From Rubripirellula amarantea (lineage in GTDB: Bacteria; Planctomycetota; Planctomycetia; Pirellulales; Pirellulaceae), in contig NZ_SJPI01000001.1 in assembly GCF_007859865.1 (NCBI RefSeq), positions 2,108,001 through 2,172,000 of the forward strand: a stretch of DNA of 64,000 nucleotides, read 5' to 3'. Below the pieces are notes generated by a model that saw only the letters and a list, made by a program, of their open reading frames with translations, ran no database searches and was not told where the DNA came from. Below, in pieces: positions 36,972-46,930 of the stretch; within the stretch, counting starts at the first letter, position 1, and each line of letters begins with the position of its first letter. The position numbers and the translations under genes were made by a program.

Positions 36972-39392
36972 TTATTTGCTCAAGAAGGTAGGGCTGGTCA
37001 CAACCGCTTTGATAAGCGATTTCATCCCGTGGCGATCTGACTTGGTTTGCTTAACGATGGTTTCCACGTTCTCGCGGTCAGCGAATTTGATGGTTGCACC
37101 CGTGCCGTACGTCAGTAGCTTTTCAACTACATTTCGAGCTAGCGCATCGGTGTCAGCCGAAACTAGATCACGGAACTGATTGAAGTCTTCGAATTTTTCA
37201 CCCGAAGGCATTTGGAAGCTGGGGTCAATCTTCGGACGGCGATTGCTACCCTTGGCATTACGATTGAAGTATCGTTCGCGCCATTGACCGGCTGGGTCAA
37301 AATTTTCCAACGCATAGCCGGGAGGGTCAATTTTGACGTGACAGGCAGCGCACTGTGAATCATCAACATGCTTGAGAAGTTGTTCACGAATGGTCGTGGC
37401 TCCGCGAATATCAGGCTCGACCGCAGGGACATTCTCGGGCGGTGGAGGAATTTCTGTGCCTAAGATTCGCTCCGAAACCCAAACACCGCGAAGCACCGGC
37501 GAGGTCGTCGTGCCGTTGGCGGTGACCTTCATGATCGCACCATGAGCCAGCAATCCACCTCGCACAGACGACTTGTCGAGGGTGTGCCGTTTCGTTTCAT
37601 TGCCGTCGAAGTCTTCGATGCCATAATGACGAGCCAAGCGACTGTTGAGATAAGTGAAGTCGCTGCGGACCAAATTTTGAATCGGCAAATCTTTGTCGAT
37701 CATCTCGTCAAGGAACAAGTGAGTCTCATCAAGCATCGCATTTTGGACGACGGGGTCATAGTTCCGGTACAGCCCTGGATCAGGCTCGGTGAAATCAATG
37801 TCCATTAAGTCGAGCCATTCGGCAGCAAAGTCTTTGACAAACTTGGGGCGTCCTGCGTCGTCCAGCAGCCGGTCAACTTGTTGGTGCAAAACATTCGGAT
37901 CGGACAATTGACCATCGGCTGCTAATTGCAACAGGACTTCGTCCGGCATAGTTCCAGTGAGGAAGTAGGCAAGTCGGTTCGCAATCGCATATTGATCGAG
38001 CAAACTGCTTCCGCTCGATGAATCCTCAAACGGTTCGACGCGATAGATGAATCGTGGAGAGCAAAGCACGGCTCGATAGGTGGACTTCAGCGCCATGATT
38101 GGTTCTTCGCCCGATTCGATCGCTTGACCAAGCATTTTTGAATACGCGTTGACGACGTTCTGGGGCACAGGACGGCGAAACGCGGAATGCATGAACGATC
38201 GAAGTTGGCGTGCCAAAGCCGCGTCCGGGGTTTTCGATTTAAGCTCGATCTTGTGCTTCTTGCGATCTATGCTGACGTTAAGATCACCGAGTAACCGCCT
38301 GCGCGTTTCGACAGGGTCGCCCTTGGGATAGATTCGCTCCATTTTCAGCGAGTGCAGGGCAACGCCCGGAACGTTTTGAGGTTCGCCTTCACCTACCCCA
38401 ACCTGTCCGCCCTGGAACTTTGCTTGTTTGAGCATGGCATCGCCGGGCCGTATCTCGATCATGTGCCCGGCGGGAATCCAAGCATCGTAAACGTGAACGG
38501 CAGGATCCTTCGTCGCCGCGAACGAACCAATCCAGTTCATTAGTGGATCGCCTGATACACAAGCACCGCTTCGAATGGTGCACCACACGTCGCGGCCCTC
38601 GGGCGGTTTAAGTCCAGACGCCTTAAACGTGATCCGATACCAGCCATCTTCGGGTGAAGTCGTCGACGTCATCCGCCCATAGAAAATCATCTTGCTCGCC
38701 CATGTAACGGCAAGCCCTTTTCGCATTTCAGGATCGCGACATCGCCGCTTAGGATTCTTTCGAGCGATCTTTTCAGGCGGGAGTTCACGAACCATCGGAG
38801 AGGTTGGTCCAACGATTCGATCAAATGCGGTGTCGAGCGCCGCATCGACCGCTTTGATGTGCGATTCCATCTGGTAGTGCGACATCGACTGACTATCGGC
38901 AATTCCAATGAAGCCATCGTTGCGTGGTTCGGCGGTCATTAGACGTGACAGCGGTATGTCGATAGCGAGCAGGTCCTGGAGCGTTCGCTCTAGCTCGGAA
39001 TTGGTGAGCCTACGACCCTGAACTCGACCGAATTGTTCGAACTGACTTTCTTGAAAATCACTAATCCACTTTGCCGTCTGGCGCGTGAAGTTTCGCCGTA
39101 GCGGATCAGCCAGTTCATCATCATCCGGCGGCGGCATCTCGCCGTCCTTGACGCGGTCATGGATTCGAACCCATGCCATGGCAACATTGGGGTCGGACAA
39201 ATCGGTGCTTAACGCGGTTAGATCAAGACCACCTTCGCCGTCGGGGCCCTCATGACATCCTATGCACGATCGTTCCACTAAACGCATGGTGATCGCGGGT
39301 GGTTGCGTGGCGGATGAGTCCTTTGCGAACCCCCGCAGCGGCGAGAGTACGCAGACAGAAACGGCGATCAACAGCGATCGAACAAGCAGCAT
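36972..39392 (-). CDS. Planctomycete cytochrome c protein, DUF1587-DUF1595-DUF1592-DUF1588-DUF1585 (copy 2)
   Basis: The 806-residue protein begins with a signal peptide (LLVRSLLIAVSVCVL) and a haem motif CIGCH near residue 48. DUF1587 (GRRLTNSELERTLQDLLAI), a beta-rich insert, DUF1595 (FMHSAFRRPVPQNVV), DUF1592 (IANRLAYFLTGTMPDEVL), DUF1588 (RGGLLAHGAIMKVTANGT, CAACHVKIDPPGYALE) and DUF1585 (LLTYGTGATIKFADRENVE) follow in the same order as in copy 1. The two copies are clearly diverged, so the duplication is not recent. The open frame reaches 39458, but ATG 39392 starts the signal peptide. The FtsK-like gene lies 108 bp upstream on the same strand; a shared transcript is possible but not evident. 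Confidence 0.9.
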   Translation of the reverse strand: MLLVRSLLIAVSVCVLSPLRGFAKDSSATQPPAITMRLVERSCIGCHEGPDGEGGLDLTALSTDLSDPNVAMAWVRIHDRVKDGEMPPPDDDELADPLRRNFTRQTAKWISDFQESQFEQFGRVQGRRLTNSELERTLQDLLAIDIPLSRLMTAEPRNDGFIGIADSQSMSHYQMESHIKAVDAALDTAFDRIVGPTSPMVRELPPEKIARKNPKRRCRDPEMRKGLAVTWASKMIFYGRMTSTTSPEDGWYRITFKASGLKPPEGRDVWCTIRSGACVSGDPLMNWIGSFAATKDPAVHVYDAWIPAGHMIEIRPGDAMLKQAKFQGGQVGVGEGEPQNVPGVALHSLKMERIYPKGDPVETRRRLLGDLNVSIDRKKHKIELKSKTPDAALARQLRSFMHSAFRRPVPQNVVNAYSKMLGQAIESGEEPIMALKSTYRAVLCSPRFIYRVEPFEDSSSGSSLLDQYAIANRLAYFLTGTMPDEVLLQLAADGQLSDPNVLHQQVDRLLDDAGRPKFVKDFAAEWLDLMDIDFTEPDPGLYRNYDPVVQNAMLDETHLFLDEMIDKDLPIQNLVRSDFTYLNSRLARHYGIEDFDGNETKRHTLDKSSVRGGLLAHGAIMKVTANGTTTSPVLRGVWVSERILGTEIPPPPENVPAVEPDIRGATTIREQLLKHVDDSQCAACHVKIDPPGYALENFDPAGQWRERYFNRNAKGSNRRPKIDPSFQMPSGEKFEDFNQFRDLVSADTDALARNVVEKLLTYGTGATIKFADRENVETIVKQTKSDRHGMKSLIKAVVTSPTFLSK

Positions 39393-39499
39393 AGATATCT
39401 GTGGCGGGAAAAAGGGCGGGACTGACAGTGACCTTGGCAGTTGCCCCAGTATAACCACCGCAATGGCGTCTGACGAACGCCGATTTCGCAGGTATCAGG

Positions 39500-42400
39500 C
39501 TACGTATTTAGCCATTTCTTGACTTTAGCCGCGTCTGGTAGTTCCGATTGCCGGAATTTTGTAATCGACCCGTCGGCATGGTCATAAACCAGCATCGTCG
39601 CGGTCGACAAATCAGACGCGACCGGGGAATCGACCAGGAACGACGAATCGTTCTGGTTCATCTGGCCCAGAATCCGCAGTTCAAAGTCGTGTTGGCTTCC
39701 GCGAGGTAACCAACGTGAAAGCGTTTCCGCGCCGCTGCAAACCGCCAGAACAAACACGCCTTGAGACGGTCCTTCGCGAAGCACGGTTTGGAATGCTTTC
39801 CCGCCGCTCATCTCGCTCGCGGCATCAAGTGAGAAGCTAAAGGATTCGTCTTGTCGTAGGTCACGAAATCTTTCTAGCGGATCAATGACGACTAAGACGG
39901 GAGGATCCGAGGACGTTTCGCCGGCTGCATTCTCTTCTCGTTGCTTAACGATATCCGCGACGCGAGCAATCTCGGCTTCGCTATCACGAGGTTTAACCGA
40001 CTTAAGGTTGATGCCACACTGATCCAACCAATCGTTCATCAAGGGGCCATCGTCGGGACGTGCCCCGTCAAAGTACACCACCTCGAGTTCAGGTACCGAC
40101 TTGGCAAAACCAGAGATCGCCGTGGCAAGAATTGCCGCTCTTGATTCACCTCCCGCGACCAGCAGTGCGTTGCGGCCGGGGTCACGAGAAAGGCTGATGC
40201 CAAGCGGAGGACCAATCTCAACGGACTCCCCTAGCAATCCGGTCATGGCATTTGCTGAATCGTTCTGCAACGCGGCATCGGCGAGTTCACTCGTCCAGTA
40301 GCAAGGTCGATTGCCCTCGAAAATTACTGCTGGTCCCAGCTTTGCACGATGGCTTTGATCGCGCGCGGCAATCGAGACAAGCATTTCGCGGTGCCGATCC
40401 GCCGAAAGCCACGCGACTTGAAAAGGTTGGTTCCCTTCCGCAAGCCCACCCGCGTTGTTGTAGATCGCTTCGCCTGGTCGGCTAATTAATCGGGCCGCGG
40501 TATTGTCGTCCGAAAGAATCAATGCCGCGTCGGCTTCACTGCACTGCATCGCAATTCGAACAGCCATTTGGCCCAGAGTTGCTCGGGGCAACGAGTAGGC
40601 GCCGGCCAGCGATTGACTGCTCAAGATCACGTGCATTCCGAACGAGCGTCCTTGTCGCACCAGGCGATCCAGAAGCATCGCACAATCCGCAGCGATCCGG
40701 TCGTCACGCATGAAGAGTTCTTGAAACTCGTCGACCACCAACATGATCCGTGGCATCGCGTCCTCGGACTTCTCGCGATACGCGCCGAGTTCTTGGGCAC
40801 CGACTGCGCGGAACTTTTCACCTCGCGATTGCAACTCGGCATCAAGACGTTGCAGCACACTGCGACCGAACTCTCGTTCGCTCTCGATTCCGATCACACG
40901 AGCATGCGGCAGTCCCGAATCTGCATAGACCTTGAACTCAACGCCCTTCTTGAAATCCAATAAGTAGAACTGCAGTTGATCTGGACGGTACTGATAGGCA
41001 CCCGCCGTGATGATTGAATGCAGCAGCGTACTTTTTCCGGAACCGGTTTTGCCCGCAATCAACACGTGCTGCCGAACACCTTCGCCTAGGTCTAGCGAAA
41101 GGGTTCGGTTTGCGCCTTGGCTTCCGATTGGAATGTTGATGCCGGAATTGGTCTCGCCACTGCCTTCGATCACACTGGTCAGCACTTGATCAAGGGGGAT
41201 TTCAACTCGCGATGCATTGACGGTCGCTACGCCAATCTTTTCGACCAACGAGTCTCGCAAATTCGGTGGCGGCGATGAAAGGGGTTCGAGAGCAAGATGC
41301 TCTAGACCGGGGACTTCCAAGTGAACACCTTGATCCTCTTTTATTCTCACTTGCATGACGTTGCTGCCCGACGGGATCGGCATGTCGGAGGGCCAAGGTT
41401 GATCGTCACGGCAAACCAAAATGGTAAAGATTCCGCACCTTAGTCCACTGTTGATAATCGCGTTGAGGTGTTTATAGCCGTCTCTTGATAGTCCCGATGG
41501 CAAGCCAATGCCTGCGATGGCGCGATAAGGCACTGCCATCGAACCGGCAACAAGATTGTAGTCTTCGATTCGCTCGAACCGATCTCGCAGCGAGGACTGT
41601 AAGACATCCTCGACGTAATGCGCGATCTCGCTAAGCCTTGTTTCAATTTTGTTATCGGTGGTCCAAACGCGGTGCCCAATGATCGATGGATCATGATCCG
41701 CAAGTGCCATCAAGCTCGTAAAGTTCTGTCCTCGTCCAATCGGGTCAATCAATGTAAGCTTTGCTCGACCGGCGGGAGCACTGGAAAGCAATCTCCATAG
41801 CAATTGTTGGCACATGTCGATCGCATCACTCATGGTTGATTCATCACAGTGTATGACTAGGCAACTGTGAAGGCGCCGATGCAGGACGATGGGCAAACGA
41901 TCAGGAATGTTGATCTCGGAAACTAGTGATACTGGAGAAGCATTCGCTGGGTTTTCAGTGGCGATAGCGATGGGAATCGTCGCGGATTCGACATGTCCGT
42001 TTTGATGTTGTGGAGGTTCAACGTTAAGAGCACCCGCGAGTTCGTCGCCAATCAGTAGCGACCCCAACGGCAAGCAATCCAAATGGTCACGGTGGCATAG
42101 ATCACTGGCCAATACCTCTTTCCAACTAGGGAATTGTTGTCGAACGGCTTGATTCGTTTTCTCGATTCGAGCAACTGCGAACTTGACGCCTGTAGCTAGG
42201 CGCTGGGTCAGGTACTGCAACTCCAAGAAGCGTTTGGCCGAATTCGCTTCACGCTTTTGTTCGATCGCATGATCGGCTTTAGCGAGCGTATTAGTGATGG
42301 CGTGAGCGACTTGGTCTGCGTTTTCACGCATCTGTTCGGTCACTTGGGACACCGATTTTTCATATTGGTGGCCGCTTGCTTCCAACAATTCAAGCAACTT

Positions 42401-43459
42401 GGCCCGCTTCGCCGTGAATTCATCGTTGATGCGTTTTTCCAGTTCGGCGAGCTGTTCCGTTTTCCATCGCTTTGCCGCAGCAATGTGAGCGTCGCGACGT
42501 TCGATCAGTTCCTTCGACGAATCTGACGCGATGCGGCGACTGATTTTGCGTGCGTGTTCGGCGCATTCGTCTGCGGCGCGTCCAAGTCGGACGACTCGCG
42601 GATAGAGCTTTCGCGTCATGCGTTTAAGCGGCATCAGAAGGATCAGGTAAATCGTGAATCCTAAAATTCCAGCAGGGATCACTCCTGCGGCAGCCCAAAG
42701 GTAAGGTTGCTTTTCAACCGTCGCGATGGCGATGATTCCCCAGATTAAAACGAAAACGCCTACGCCCGCTGGCAAGTAAAACGAGTCAACAATTTTCGAT
42801 GCAGCACCGGTCTGCATTTCATGGATAACTTTGTTGCATTTCCGAGTGATCACATCAATCGTGTCGATAGCTTCCCGTACATCTTTGGGAAGCGGCTGGC
42901 TCATGTCCTCTTCGGGGTCCTCAGGCGGGCCAACTTCAAGCAAACCATCCAACCTGCGAACCGTTAAAGCGTTGGCCCATTCGAGGTGATCTTGCAAAGG
43001 CAGCAGCGCTTCATCGATCTGCTTGATCTCTTTGCGTTGTTGTTGGCCGGGTTGGTTCTTGCGGTTCTCGAACTGTTGCAAGACCGCTTGGTGTCGAGCC
43101 TCTACTTTGCGTTCGATCGTCTGTTCTTCTTCTTGTTTCTTCCGGCGATAGATAACAGCAAGGCGATTAAGTTCGGATCGCAAGGAAAGAGTTTGCTGCT
43201 CGTACTTGAACGTCAGGATTTCCTCGGCGTTGTCCCATTTGTTTAGCATGTTGCGACGTGAATCGCGGCAATGGCTGGTAACGCTTCGCTTCTCTTCGTT
43301 GAGTTCAATTTCTTCTTTGGCTCGCGCTTGAGCATGCTGAGCCTTCAATCGCTCTCGCTCCAAAACACAGTGCCCCACCCGGTCCGCCAATGCCGAGAGC
43401 ACTTGCTTAGAACGAGTGACGTTCATCAAACCGGTTGGACTAACTGTCGAATCTTTCAT
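39500..43459 (-). CDS. FtsK/EccC-like membrane ATPase with three tandem ATPase modules and a coiled-coil head
   Basis: The 1319-residue protein has an N-terminal coiled coil (about 15-165), a pair of membrane helices (about 228-282; GVGVFVLIWGIIAIATV, IPAGILGFTIYLILLMP), a second coiled region (285-440), then three RecA/FtsK-like modules. Module 1 (about 520-740) lacks a P-loop. Module 2 (about 780-1000) has Walker A GKTGSGKST (near 806) and Walker B IMLVVDEFQE (near 907). Module 3 (about 1090-1315) has VAGGESRAA where the P-loop should be. This plan (membrane anchor plus three tandem FtsK modules) is that of EccC/EssC, the motor of type VII secretion, though the coiled coil and the active middle module differ. 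It follows a WXG100-like gene by 77 bp. A DNA translocase role is the alternative. Confidence 0.78.
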   Translation of the reverse strand: MKDSTVSPTGLMNVTRSKQVLSALADRVGHCVLERERLKAQHAQARAKEEIELNEEKRSVTSHCRDSRRNMLNKWDNAEEILTFKYEQQTLSLRSELNRLAVIYRRKKQEEEQTIERKVEARHQAVLQQFENRKNQPGQQQRKEIKQIDEALLPLQDHLEWANALTVRRLDGLLEVGPPEDPEEDMSQPLPKDVREAIDTIDVITRKCNKVIHEMQTGAASKIVDSFYLPAGVGVFVLIWGIIAIATVEKQPYLWAAAGVIPAGILGFTIYLILLMPLKRMTRKLYPRVVRLGRAADECAEHARKISRRIASDSSKELIERRDAHIAAAKRWKTEQLAELEKRINDEFTAKRAKLLELLEASGHQYEKSVSQVTEQMRENADQVAHAITNTLAKADHAIEQKREANSAKRFLELQYLTQRLATGVKFAVARIEKTNQAVRQQFPSWKEVLASDLCHRDHLDCLPLGSLLIGDELAGALNVEPPQHQNGHVESATIPIAIATENPANASPVSLVSEINIPDRLPIVLHRRLHSCLVIHCDESTMSDAIDMCQQLLWRLLSSAPAGRAKLTLIDPIGRGQNFTSLMALADHDPSIIGHRVWTTDNKIETRLSEIAHYVEDVLQSSLRDRFERIEDYNLVAGSMAVPYRAIAGIGLPSGLSRDGYKHLNAIINSGLRCGIFTILVCRDDQPWPSDMPIPSGSNVMQVRIKEDQGVHLEVPGLEHLALEPLSSPPPNLRDSLVEKIGVATVNASRVEIPLDQVLTSVIEGSGETNSGINIPIGSQGANRTLSLDLGEGVRQHVLIAGKTGSGKSTLLHSIITAGAYQYRPDQLQFYLLDFKKGVEFKVYADSGLPHARVIGIESEREFGRSVLQRLDAELQSRGEKFRAVGAQELGAYREKSEDAMPRIMLVVDEFQELFMRDDRIAADCAMLLDRLVRQGRSFGMHVILSSQSLAGAYSLPRATLGQMAVRIAMQCSEADAALILSDDNTAARLISRPGEAIYNNAGGLAEGNQPFQVAWLSADRHREMLVSIAARDQSHRAKLGPAVIFEGNRPCYWTSELADAALQNDSANAMTGLLGESVEIGPPLGISLSRDPGRNALLVAGGESRAAILATAISGFAKSVPELEVVYFDGARPDDGPLMNDWLDQCGINLKSVKPRDSEAEIARVADIVKQREENAAGETSSDPPVLVVIDPLERFRDLRQDESFSFSLDAASEMSGGKAFQTVLREGPSQGVFVLAVCSGAETLSRWLPRGSQHDFELRILGQMNQNDSSFLVDSPVASDLSTATMLVYDHADGSITKFRQSELPDAAKVKKWLNT

Positions 43460-43536
43460 GCCACCGTCGCCACTGAATGGGAATGAGGGTGATCAGCCGA
43501 GCTGGTCGAGTCCCATGGAACTAACCTCTATCTTAC

Positions 43537-43785
43537 TCAATCCGAGCGCGCATAATGGTCATCCAGGTCACGGTTGGCATCGTGAATTGTGTCAAGAAAA
43601 TCGTGGAGTGATGCTGAAAAACGGCTCAAACTCGGGCCGATCGAGGTCAAGTGCTCGCGTTCAAAGCGTTCGCGACGTGAATCAACCCAATCCTCTTTGA
43701 CCGCCGACCATAGCTGGGCGAATTCAACGAAGTCGCGTTGAATTCTATTTTCGCAGTCTCGAATACGTCCCACGTTGAACGTCAT
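43537..43785 (-). CDS. WXG100-like small helical protein
   Basis: The 82-residue protein is predicted to form two long helices (about 5-31 and 38-78) separated by a turn at D-W-V-D-S (W33). WXG100 substrates and effectors of type VII systems are about 100 residues long, have the same helix-turn-helix hairpin with W-x-G at the turn, and are encoded beside an EccC ATPase. Here the motif reads W-V-D, so assignment rests on size, helical layout, the tryptophan and context. It overlaps the helical-repeat gene by 4 bp (ATGA) and precedes the FtsK-like ATPase by 77 bp. No signal peptide, cysteine or membrane helix is present. Confidence 0.6.
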   Translation of the reverse strand: MTFNVGRIRDCENRIQRDFVEFAQLWSAVKEDWVDSRRERFEREHLTSIGPSLSRFSASLHDFLDTIHDANRDLDDHYARSD

Positions 43786-45359
43786 GACGGTGAATCCAGT
43801 TCGTTCGTTTCATCGCTTTCGCTGTCGCTATCGATTTCGTTGTTAAACGTTCGAAGCATTTTGCGACCCTTGTAGAGATTGAATAGATCAATGGCCGAAA
43901 GTGGACGCAATCTTCCCGAGGTCGGTTGTTCGATCGTCTCGAGTCCGTCACTGACCACAAGGCATGGCTTGCCATCGCGAGTCGCTTCGAACACGCCAGC
44001 TTTTTCATCCAGGAAAATTCCCAGCAATGCCGGTTTTAGTGATTCGAACTCGGATCGTTCCAAATGCTCGCTCAACGAACGCATGACGCGAACTTGAGCC
44101 TCGTTGAGTTGTTCAGAAGGCACCACGAAGATTTCGGGATGGTCGGCGTGCCAACCTGCATAAATTGCATAGATGTCGTTCATCGGCAAGTCGGCGACAT
44201 CCGCACCGAGCGCAAACGTCACCGGCCCCGTGACACCCACGTTGCTATAAATCCGCTCGCCAAAGTTGTACTCGAACCGAACTAAAAGGATATCAACCGG
44301 GTCATTAAAACTTGGCCACAGCATCCGTTTGCGATGGACGACTTCCACACTGGTTGGCGGAACACCCATTTGCGCCGGTTGGCTCAACCATAGTGTCATT
44401 TCGGCTTCGGCAGTTGCTTCGTCGCTGCGATACTTTTCGTCGATCAGTTCACCGAAGTGAAGCTCGTCGGCGTAGTGAATTGCTCGGAGTCGTGCCGAAG
44501 GTTCTGCCGCAAGCTCTATCAGCCGCTTCTTGCCCAAGTCATCACCAAGTCTGGCCAACGCCCCGGCGGCTTCGCACTGAACTCGTCGATGTTTCAGTTC
44601 GATCGTTTGATTCAGCTTGCTAATGGCAGACTCATCGCCCAACAGGCCAACGCTATCGCAAAGTGACACCGCAAGCGCGACCGCTTCCCCTAGACGAGTC
44701 TGGACGGTGTTGACATCGTCACCGAAGACGCGAGGGTTCTCTTCGAATTGGGCAAGACGACCCGTGACTTCACCCAATAACGCGTTCAGCATCGTTTCGC
44801 GTCCCGATGCTGGATGTTGATCAATGCGTCCGCTGCGATAGAGGTAATTGGCCAAGTCCAAGAGCGTGGATGCGAGCGACGGGTGTTGGAGAGCACCGAA
44901 CACGCGAGGGAACACGGCGGCAATGGGCCAGTCGTTGTACTTCATTAGCGGGCTGAGCGATTGAGCCGCATTGATCCAATCCGTCGGTGGCGATTCGATC
45001 AAGCAATCGACCAACCAATTCAATGACTCTTGTGTGCGGATGCTGGCCGCCAACTGCAACAACAGGTGACGATTAGGCGTTGATTCGGGGACCTTGGATG
45101 TCAATTCACGAAGTTGGTCGAAGTCCAATACTTCCGCGACATCACCACCTGGTTGAAGCGTGGTCGTGTGTAGGACGCGAATTAAGCCCCCTAAGATTGC
45201 CGGATCGGCCGTCGGCGCTTGGCTACTAAGCTGAGCGAGTTGTTCCAGTAACAGTGGGGCTTTCTCGATAGACGCGTCGGCGAGTTCTCGCAATTGCCAA
45301 CCCGCGGCTACGGGGTCTGCGTCGCGGCTGAGAAGAGAAGTGAGTTGATGCTCAAACAC
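43782..45359 (-). CDS. Helical-repeat (HEAT-like) protein of the FtsK/WXG-like operon
   Basis: The 525-residue protein has no signal peptide or membrane helix. Residues about 1-310 are alpha-helical with HEAT/ARM-like repeats (QCEAAGALARLGDDLGKKRL, LLLQLAASIRTQESL). The C-terminal part (about 340-500) is mixed alpha/beta (VDILLVRFEYNFGERIYSNV, IYAIYAGWHADHPEIFVVP) and unrecognised. The chain ends in an acidic tail (SDSESDETNELD). It is the first gene of the operon and is coupled by a 4-bp overlap to the WXG-like gene, so it probably works with it and the ATPase, for example as a cytosolic adaptor or chaperone. That role is inference. Confidence 0.68.
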   Translation of the reverse strand: MFEHQLTSLLSRDADPVAAGWQLRELADASIEKAPLLLEQLAQLSSQAPTADPAILGGLIRVLHTTTLQPGGDVAEVLDFDQLRELTSKVPESTPNRHLLLQLAASIRTQESLNWLVDCLIESPPTDWINAAQSLSPLMKYNDWPIAAVFPRVFGALQHPSLASTLLDLANYLYRSGRIDQHPASGRETMLNALLGEVTGRLAQFEENPRVFGDDVNTVQTRLGEAVALAVSLCDSVGLLGDESAISKLNQTIELKHRRVQCEAAGALARLGDDLGKKRLIELAAEPSARLRAIHYADELHFGELIDEKYRSDEATAEAEMTLWLSQPAQMGVPPTSVEVVHRKRMLWPSFNDPVDILLVRFEYNFGERIYSNVGVTGPVTFALGADVADLPMNDIYAIYAGWHADHPEIFVVPSEQLNEAQVRVMRSLSEHLERSEFESLKPALLGIFLDEKAGVFEATRDGKPCLVVSDGLETIEQPTSGRLRPLSAIDLFNLYKGRKMLRTFNNEIDSDSESDETNELDSPS

Positions 45360-45506: not shown

Positions 45507-46055
45507 TTACATCGAGGGGGTGCGTTGGACGGCAACACCACATCGTTTTTCGACAATGTTTAAGTGGTGAGCAAGGTGACCGGCAGTCACCCATGCCATT
45601 GCCCGAACGGAAATGGGAGCTCCATCGACGGGAACTGTTTGGCTCCAGCATCTCGGAGCAATGCGTTGCAGCAACAACAAGTTCGATTGGCGAAGCAAGC
45701 CAAGCTCGGTAATCAAGTTGGTAAATGTCCCTAGGCCGAAGCGCGCATCGGCATAATGATTTTCGTCCCAACTACTCAGTCCGGTTGAGTCACCCGCTGC
45801 GGCTCGCAGAATTCGGTAACCAAATATTCGTTCCGCGTCGGCGCAATGTTCAAAAACTTGTCGAACCGTCCAACCAAACGGTGGGTGGATTTTGTCAACC
45901 TGTTCGGTGCACAAAAAACTTCCCAGTTCGCAGATCCAATACTGCTGGTTGCGGAGTACTGATAGTGCATCTTCGCCATCAACCTGATTAACAAGCTTTT
46001 GGTGATAGGCATGAGAGCACTCGGAAGAATCAGGACGACAACTTGCCAGGGCCAT
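45507..46055 (-). CDS. DinB-superfamily protein
   Basis: The 182-residue protein has the four-helix DinB/YfiT-like plan with metal-ligand histidines in the expected places: H70 in VFEHCADAER and H160/H163/H164 in GHLAHHLNIVEKR. The block WTVRQVFEHCADAERIFGYR is typical of the group. Members include thiol-S-transferases and damage-inducible proteins that use a metal to activate a low-molecular-weight thiol; which reaction this one performs cannot be told. It is on the same strand as the HEAT/WXG/FtsK operon and 147 bp before it, but is probably separate. Confidence 0.8.
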   Translation of the reverse strand: MALASCRPDSSECSHAYHQKLVNQVDGEDALSVLRNQQYWICELGSFLCTEQVDKIHPPFGWTVRQVFEHCADAERIFGYRILRAAAGDSTGLSSWDENHYADARFGLGTFTNLITELGLLRQSNLLLLQRIAPRCWSQTVPVDGAPISVRAMAWVTAGHLAHHLNIVEKRCGVAVQRTPSM

Positions 46056-46315: not shown

Positions 46316-46930
46316 ATGATCGGCATCTATGTGCTAGCCGGAGTCGTAGTTTCTTTGGTCGCCATTGGCGTCAAGCTGCGAGACGCGGAGCGTAATCGAG
46401 CTACGCTGGAAAAGAATTGCCGTCAGTCCTGGGCATCGCTTCATGATCAACTTCGCAACCGGCACTTGATTGTCAGCCATCTGATCGACAGCGTGGCGGG
46501 ACGATCAAATCTTTTGGTAGACGTCAACGAGTTATCGGCCAGCTTGAAAGAAGTTGAATCGCGATTGGATTCACTTCAGGGCAATTTGCCGGGCACCGGG
46601 GAAGCAAACGCGATCGGAGAATGCGAAAGTAAGTGCTTGCGTCAGCTTCGGCGGCTTCGAAAGAAGCTCAAGAAAGCGCCCGATATCTTATCGCTTCGTC
46701 AGGTGACAGCTTGCTGGGAAGGCCTTGATGGTTGCGACGAGCAGATTGACAACAGCAAAGCGGTCTACAACGCAGCGGTTATTACCTACAACACTCACCT
46801 TGGTTCGCGAGAGGCGCGTTGTTTGACGTTTCTCAATCGACCTGTGTCGCCCTGTGGGCCTATCAGCTTTGATTGGTATGCCAGCGACAGCGGTTTGAGT
46901 AAGCCATCGCCCTGTCCTAAGTCCGACTAA
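46316..46930 (+). CDS. LemA-like membrane-anchored helical protein
   Basis: The 204-residue protein has one N-terminal membrane helix (about 2-21; IYVLAGVVVSLVAIGVKL) and a mainly helical body. The block WASLHDQLRNRHLIVSHLID (near 40-60) and the later NAAVITYNTHLGSRE (near 150) match the LemA pattern of a membrane anchor followed by a four-helix bundle with a Y-N motif before a short proline-rich tail (PVSPCGPISFDWY). LemA proteins are widespread and of unknown function. It is divergent from the DinB gene and convergent with the esterase gene. Confidence 0.6.
   Translation: MIGIYVLAGVVVSLVAIGVKLRDAERNRATLEKNCRQSWASLHDQLRNRHLIVSHLIDSVAGRSNLLVDVNELSASLKEVESRLDSLQGNLPGTGEANAIGECESKCLRQLRRLRKKLKKAPDILSLRQVTACWEGLDGCDEQIDNSKAVYNAAVITYNTHLGSREARCLTFLNRPVSPCGPISFDWYASDSGLSKPSPCPKSD

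What the first reader, a model, noticed from the sequence alone, without database searches (positions are those of the whole stretch)
39500..45359. Candidate type VII-like secretion module: helical-repeat protein, WXG-like protein and triple-FtsK ATPase
Three minus-strand genes are packed as one operon (4-bp overlap, then a 77-bp gap). The ATPase has the membrane-anchored, three-module FtsK plan of EccC/EssC, and the 82-residue protein between has the size, two-helix layout and turn tryptophan of WXG100 substrates. Type VII secretion is best known from Gram-positive bacteria and mycobacteria; a diderm, planctomycete version with a HEAT-like partner instead of EccB/D/E would be new. The gene set and overlaps are seen in the sequence; the type VII reading is inference.
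Basis: partly seen in the sequence, partly recalled or inferred. Interest (0 to 1): 0.8.

Follow-up and report, generated by a model that had tools for sequence, protein, structure and literature searches.

The report
Minimal type VII-like export system, planctomycete

Summary
The three ORFs, the 4-bp overlap and the 77-bp gap are real. The ATPase has a membrane hairpin and three FtsK-like modules, only the middle one with Walker motifs (one P-loop in 75 of 75 homologues). The 82-aa protein (S) is modelled as a helical hairpin with an invariant W-x-D turn; its profile matches EsxA. The HEAT-like gene is not a component: relatives have it without the ATPase and the reverse. The true partners are a WXG100 protein (W; closest solved structure H. 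pylori HP0062) and a coiled-coil protein (C), 1.95 Mb away in this genome but in the order W-C-S-ATPase in 43 of 80 named loci. In 294 Planctomycetota genomes W, S and ATPase occur together in 37 and two of three in 4. Prior work already notes solo-WXG, middle-active ATPase systems in planctomycetes (PMC3482391) and a similar gene set in CoCoNuT operons (PMC11090510). New here: the membrane-anchored, chromosomal, four-gene version. Export is inferred, not shown.

The parts
39500..43459 (-). EccC/EssC-like ATPase, 1319 aa: membrane hairpin then three FtsK-like modules
42626..42781 (-). membrane hairpin of the ATPase (residues 227-278, two hydrophobic segments)
   Evidence: hydropathy in homologues
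41240..41908 (-). ATPase module 1 (about residues 518-740), FtsK-like without Walker A
40304..41152 (-). ATPase module 2 (about residues 770-1052), the only module with Walker A and B
41027..41053 (-). Walker A GKTGSGKST (residues 803-811)
40724..40744 (-). Walker B region ending in DEF (residues 906-912)
39503..40258 (-). ATPase module 3 (about residues 1068-1319), FtsK-like without Walker A
43537..43785 (-). S: 82-aa WXG100-like helical hairpin with W-x-D turn
43681..43689 (-). W33-V-D35 turn of S
   Evidence: W33 and D35 invariant in 56 of 56 rows; W-x-D in 67 of 67 distinct named-locus sequences
43782..45359 (-). HEAT-like neighbour gene, judged NOT part of the system

Best explanation
The ATPase and S are half of a four-component, membrane-anchored WXG100/EssC-like export system (W, C, S, ATPase). 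Proposed working: the ATPase sits in the inner membrane by its hairpin and, like EccC/EssC, forms a ring (inferred); only the middle module hydrolyses ATP (motif conservation shown, activity inferred), the flanking modules being structural or substrate-binding (inferred); W and S are signal-less helical hairpins with a W-x-D turn that bring substrate to the ATPase (inferred); C, encoded next to W, is the best candidate for the substrate or its carrier (inferred). Transfer is across the inner membrane (inferred); how anything would cross the outer membrane is unknown.
For: Sequence: EccCa 2.4e-32 vs FtsK 7.3e-9; PDB EccC 4nh0 1.2e-36 vs FtsK about 1e-11; Foldseek's best match is EccC 4nh0, E 3e-30 over 914 columns. 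One P-loop in 75 of 75 ATPases. Hydrophobic segment(s) before the modules in 72 of 74 homologues, hairpin-sized in 69. W matches Pfam WXG100 in 19 of 19 rows at E<=1, best 2.7e-11, over the cut-off in 46 of 60 genomes, and PDB HP0062 7e-11 and EsxB 1.6e-7. S profile matches EsxA 5e-5 over its length. Co-occurrence: W, S and ATPase together in 37 of 294 genomes, two of the three in 4, none alone at the thresholds used; all four in 36. W and S are in the same 46 of 60 relatives, the ATPase in 45 of them plus a fragment in the 46th. The set is kept even where dispersed: in G164 (one contig) all four lie apart. A related Helicobacter sp. plasmid locus has a WHH/colicin-DNase protein and a SMI1/KNR4 protein between its W-like gene and the ATPase, the layout of an exported toxin with immunity. 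One active motor can suffice: only the D1 Walker motifs of EssC are needed for export in S. intermedius T7SSb (PMC13355648, passages).
Against: No secretion has been shown. No toxin-domain scan of the planctomycete neighbourhoods was made; clustering of neighbours showed no family shared by more than 13 of 80 loci, and the window's genome has a single Pfam WXG100 match, so the cargo is unknown. Three modules, not the four (D0-D3) of EssC. YukD not found in G000. The middle module scores higher with FtsK than with EccCb1-D2, and the whole-length EccC superposition is poor (TM 0.39, rmsd 14.6). Relatives sit in TerY-P/Ter stress or defence loci, which allows a non-secretory role; PMC13355648 itself notes that in S. 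aureus the C-terminal domains matter for export.
Confidence: 0.6

Rival explanations
1. The set is an intracellular stress or conflict machine: the ATPase remodels or moves nucleic acid or protein inside the cell, with W and S as adaptors, as proposed around TerY-P/CoCoNuT operons.
For: The Caballeronia plasmid homologue lies in a vWA/PP2C/kinase/AAA locus and the Rhodococcus one beside TerD genes; CoCoNuT-linked homologues lack membrane helices (PMC11090510, passages). A Ser/Thr-kinase-like family (by eye) lies within 10 kb in 5 of 80 planctomycete loci.
Against: Planctomycete ATPases carry hydrophobic segments before the modules in 72 of 74, hairpin-sized in 69, while the four plasmid relatives have none or one of about 20 residues. 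That kinase-like family lies at varying places and distances; no family scan for vWA, PP2C or McrBC was made.
Confidence: 0.25
2. The ATPase is a DNA translocase of the FtsK/SpoIIIE kind.
Against: Sequence ranks EccC/EssC far above FtsK; no gamma domain among Pfam matches; the genome has another FtsK-like ORF (open frame 948 aa) at C1:2511177-2511962, E 5e-13 (not examined further); co-occurrence with WXG100 proteins.
Confidence: 0.08
3. One reading: HEAT-like protein, S and ATPase are one three-part secretion module.
For: The HEAT-like gene overlaps S in the window and precedes S in 10 of 80 named loci and in the window's genus.
Against: It matches in 9 of 14 relatives without the ATPase and in none of 6 that have it; in other genera it mostly lies on other contigs or far away.
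Confidence: 0.04

Closest known systems
Solo-WXG / three-module ATPase systems (PMC3482391, table note 6; passages)
   Same: Planctomycetes named; WXG domain protein plus a YueA/EssC-like ATPase with three FtsK modules, only the middle active.
   Different: That note calls them apparently mobile; here the quick ATPase tree is ordered mostly by class. S, C, the membrane hairpin and the dispersal are not in the passages I saw.
H. pylori HP0062 / HP0066 (PMC3397514, PMC4978471; passages)
   Same: W resembles HP0062 (7e-11), same WRD turn, FtsK/SpoIIIE gene in the cluster.
   Different: Planctomycetes add a second short WXG100-like protein and C; the H. pylori cluster lists an HNH/ENDO VII nuclease, none was identified in the four planctomycete genes.
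[quoted passage not shown] passages)
   Same: Middle-active three-module ATPase with long N-terminal coiled coil, two WXG100 proteins (one atypical), a coiled-coil gene.
   Different: There the ATPases lack membrane helices, the coiled-coil protein carries a nuclease, and the set is part of a restriction/TerY-P operon.
T7SSa/T7SSb (EccC/EssC with EsxA; PMC11217815, PMC13355648; passages)
   Same: Membrane hairpin, tandem FtsK modules, WXG100 partners.
   Different: Three modules instead of D0-D3; no YukD in G000; EccB uninformative; EssA, EssB, EsaA, EccE, MycP not tested.

Membership tests
T7SSa/T7SSb | membrane-anchored EccC/EssC-family ATPase | tested here: met
   note that fold of the middle module alone scores higher with FtsK
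T7SSa/T7SSb | four FtsK-type domains D0-D3 in the ATPase | tested here: not met
   three modules in the model of residues 441-1319 and in profiles; four in EssC per PMC13355648; residues 1-440 were not modelled
T7SSa/T7SSb | WXG100 partner protein | tested here: met
   W: Pfam WXG100 in 19 of 19 rows, over the cut-off in 46 of 60 genomes
T7SSa/T7SSb | YukD/EsaB-like or EccD ubiquitin-like component | tested here: not met
   PF08817 absent from G000, in 8 of 60 relatives, three of them without the ATPase; control rang in B. subtilis
T7SSa/T7SSb | EccB | tested here: inconclusive
   0 of 60, but no control genome rang
T7SSa/T7SSb | EssA, EssB, EsaA, EccE, MycP | not tested
   no genome search was left
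T7SSa/T7SSb | ATPase-dependent secretion of WXG100 proteins | not testable with these tools
   needs experiment
Solo-WXG/middle-active ATPase systems | three FtsK modules, only the middle with Walker motifs | tested here: met
   one P-loop in 75 of 75
Solo-WXG/middle-active ATPase systems | WXG100 protein without effector domain, with the ATPase | tested here: met
   linked in 43 of 80 loci; same genome but unlinked in G000
Solo-WXG/middle-active ATPase systems | mobile | tested here: inconclusive
   quick ATPase tree of 48 rows: class labels need 4 changes (least possible 2; shuffled mean 9.1, 0 of 200 as low; 12 rows unlabelled); transfers not excluded
CoCoNuT EssC-like extension | two WXG100-type proteins plus coiled-coil protein | tested here: met
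   W, S, C; that C is coiled-coil is read from its sequence, no coil predictor was run
CoCoNuT EssC-like extension | coiled-coil protein fused to a nuclease | tested here: inconclusive
   Pfam on 14 C proteins: weak Exonuc_VII_L matches in 8 (best 0.0012; 14.4 bits vs cut-off 35.9 for the first member), probably coil similarity; 25 of 47 families shown
CoCoNuT EssC-like extension | no membrane helices in the ATPase | tested here: not met
   hydrophobic segment(s) in 72 of 74, hairpin-sized in 69
WXG100 superfamily (for S) | helical hairpin with W in the turn | tested here: met
WXG100 superfamily (for S) | sequence match to the family | tested here: inconclusive
   Pfam WXG100 in 7 of 27 members, best 8e-4, window member none; profile vs EsxA 5e-5
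FtsK/SpoIIIE DNA translocase | gamma domain | tested here: not met
   not among the 16 Pfam matches of the whole protein at E<=1

The most novel reading that the evidence does not exclude
Planctomycetota carry a third major branch of type VII-like secretion: a four-component, single-motor, membrane-anchored WXG100 exporter in a diderm phylum, inherited with the chromosome, used for a housekeeping (not weapon) export, and kept as a set even after its genes scattered over the genome.
Probability: 0.4. Interest if true: 0.75.

Novelty: new variant of a known kind. Interest (0 to 1): 0.55.

Why it matters
Type VII secretion is studied mainly in Gram-positive and mycobacterial species, where several further subunits are needed. 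A four-gene version in diderm planctomycetes would show a minimal core, raise the question how a WXG100 system deals with an outer membrane, and connect the defence-linked and stand-alone WXG100/EssC-like ATPases. The co-retention of scattered genes predicts a complex that can be tested directly.

Tried and rejected
HEAT partner: rejected by distribution. YukD: in 8 of 60 relatives, not G000, and in G024, G033 and G035 without the ATPase. EccB: uninformative, no control rang. PADLOC matches (SspH 5e-26, mad8 1e-21 and weaker HerA and ZorA rows) are read as shared FtsK-type module or coil; no defence-system partners were searched. Extra conserved neighbours: clustering of ORFs of 90 aa or more in 80 loci (first 25 clusters viewed) gave groups of at most 13 loci, at mixed positions or among close relatives. 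Foldseek with S: no match at E<=0.001. The first PDB row for the S profile (7y9n) is a repeated coil with per-stretch E about 17 and was set aside. S against W by profile was weak (probability 56%, E 1e-4). C-like and S-like calls on plasmids are weak (C: Rhodococcus 17.9 and Deinococcus 18.9 bits; S: 11.2 and 20.4 bits; E-values there refer to about two dozen sequences), and the small genes before the ATPase at the Caballeronia and Helicobacter loci scored 0.4 and 4.3 bits with S. The Deinococcus ATPase has no GxxxxGK[ST]. In one search, 37 of 80 loci lack at least one of the four; many are on short contigs, but L113, L138 and L171 have over 8.5 kb upstream of the ATPase and show none. Naming modules 1, 2, 3 as D0, D1, D2 of EssC is inference; no single-module model was made. 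Phage records: 221 matched, none over 80% of the query, not followed. The literature search was badly worded and gave nothing useful.

Full report
What is there. Three minus-strand genes are present as described: 43782-45359 (525 aa), 43537-43785 (82 aa, here S) and 39500-43459 (1319 aa, the ATPase), with a 4-bp overlap and a 77-bp gap. In a tree of ATPases the window's nearest named rows are Rubripirellula and Rhodopirellula.

The missing half. In other families of the order the ATPase is preceded by W (about 90 aa), C (about 160-290 aa, starts uncertain) and S. W is a real WXG100 protein: Pfam in 19 of 19 at E<=1; PDB HP0062 7e-11, EsxB 1.6e-7 (that this EsxB is from B. anthracis is recalled); turn WRD in 38 and WKD in 3 of 41. 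C has no credible Pfam family (8 of 14 reach Exonuc_VII_L weakly, best 0.0012) and no hydrophobic segment in 48 of 49. In G000, W and C sit together at C1:197136-197946, 1.95 Mb from the window's operon. The 80 named loci are the best-scoring of at least 558 and overlap with the 60 relatives. Of them 43 hold W-C-S-ATPase in this order, 6 C-S-ATPase, 10 HEAT-S-ATPase, 8 S-ATPase and 13 only the ATPase.

Co-occurrence. In 60 relatives W and S are each found in the same 46 genomes; the ATPase is found in 45 of these and as a contig-edge fragment in G013. In 294 Planctomycetota genomes W has 40, S 40, ATPase 39 and C 38 (only the top candidates of each genome were scored). W, S and ATPase are together in 37; all four in 36. 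Incomplete: G166 (W, ATPase), G277 (ATPase, S), G329 and G337 (W, C, S), G320 (W, S, ATPase, no C). No genome has one alone at the thresholds used. Fisher tests give p of 3e-44 or less, without correction for shared descent. In G164 (one contig) the four genes lie at 0.23, 0.71, 1.94 and 2.66 Mb, yet all are kept.

The HEAT-like gene. It matches in 49 of 60 relatives: in 9 of the 14 that lack the ATPase (G045 only partly), and not in 6 that have it. It is a neighbour in the Rhodopirellula/Rubripirellula group, not a component.

Relatives elsewhere. The ATPase search hit 520 plasmid records, 3 of them over at least 80% of the query; I looked at four loci. Caballeronia: vWA, W-like, three other genes, ATPase, CARF, vWA, PP2C, kinase, AAA. 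Rhodococcus: ATPase, then 314-, 73- and 87-aa proteins with weak C-like, weak S-like and clearer W-like scores, near TerD genes. Helicobacter sp.: W-like, a 340-aa protein with WHH/colicin-DNase match, a SMI1/KNR4 protein, a 77-aa protein, ATPase. Deinococcus: ATPase without canonical P-loop, W-like and weak C- and S-like proteins. These four ATPases have no hydrophobic segment (two) or a single one of about 20 residues (two).

Literature; I saw passages, not whole papers. PMC3482391: planctomycetes and other lineages have solo WXG domains with a three-module ATPase, only the middle active, apparently mobile. PMC3397514: HP0062 has a WRD turn, is a dimer and clusters with a FtsK/SpoIIIE-domain gene. 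PMC4978471: WxG plus FtsK as a minimal type VII set, naming HP0062 and HP0066. PMC11090510: a middle-active EssC-like ATPase with two WXG100 proteins and a coiled-coil nuclease, without membrane helices, citing an earlier report of stand-alone versions. PMC13355648: EssC has D0-D3 and only D1 Walker motifs are needed for export. PMC11217815: T7SSc-j in Gram-positives. PMC3935865: WXG100 proteins found almost only in Actinobacteria and Firmicutes, a few in Chloroflexi. PMC3843698 lists HP0062 among structural neighbours of Esx proteins. Five searches for planctomycete type VII or WXG100 reports listed seven different papers; I saw passages of PMC3482391 and PMC3796261 only, and the first is the one that describes such a system. 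Most subscription journals are not covered.

Reading. Best: a membrane-anchored, single-motor WXG100/EssC-like exporter. Shown: gene content, motifs, predicted folds, co-occurrence. Inferred: ring assembly, docking by W and S, C as substrate or carrier, export itself. The quick ATPase tree (window, 43 named loci, 4 plasmids) groups mainly by class (4 changes where 2 is the least; 0 of 200 shuffles as low; 12 rows unlabelled), which speaks for mostly vertical descent and against a chiefly mobile element, but 13 of 45 inner branches are open and the plasmid rows are very long.

Noticed in passing
window 46316-46930 (+): LemA-family protein (27.2 bits, just over the cut-off 26.2) divergent from the operon.
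   Followed up: no
window 45507-46055 (-): DinB_2 superfamily protein; a similar gene precedes the HEAT gene in eight named relatives.
   Followed up: no
window 36972-39458 (-): Planctomycete cytochrome c / DUF1592-1588-1585-1595-1587 protein directly downstream of the ATPase.
   Followed up: no
ATPase tree, clade of Rhodopirellula, Rubripirellula, Roseimaritima, Laterigemmans and the window: A long branch (1.28 changes per column) leads to this clade of 12 rows; within it the window's genus has W-C separated from S-ATPase.
   Followed up: no
L091 6211-7116; relatives L092-L096 and L100: A 267-397 aa protein, TPR-like by eye, precedes W-C in the window's genome and six relatives.
   Followed up: partly
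L191 7761-12163: Helicobacter sp. plasmid locus with a WHH/colicin-type nuclease and a SMI1/KNR4 protein between a WXG100-like gene and the ATPase.
   Followed up: partly
L166, L182: Contigs of MAGs labelled Anaerolineae carry the ATPase; transfer or mis-binning not resolved.
   Followed up: no
L192 7680-10523: Deinococcus plasmid homologue without a canonical P-loop.
   Followed up: no
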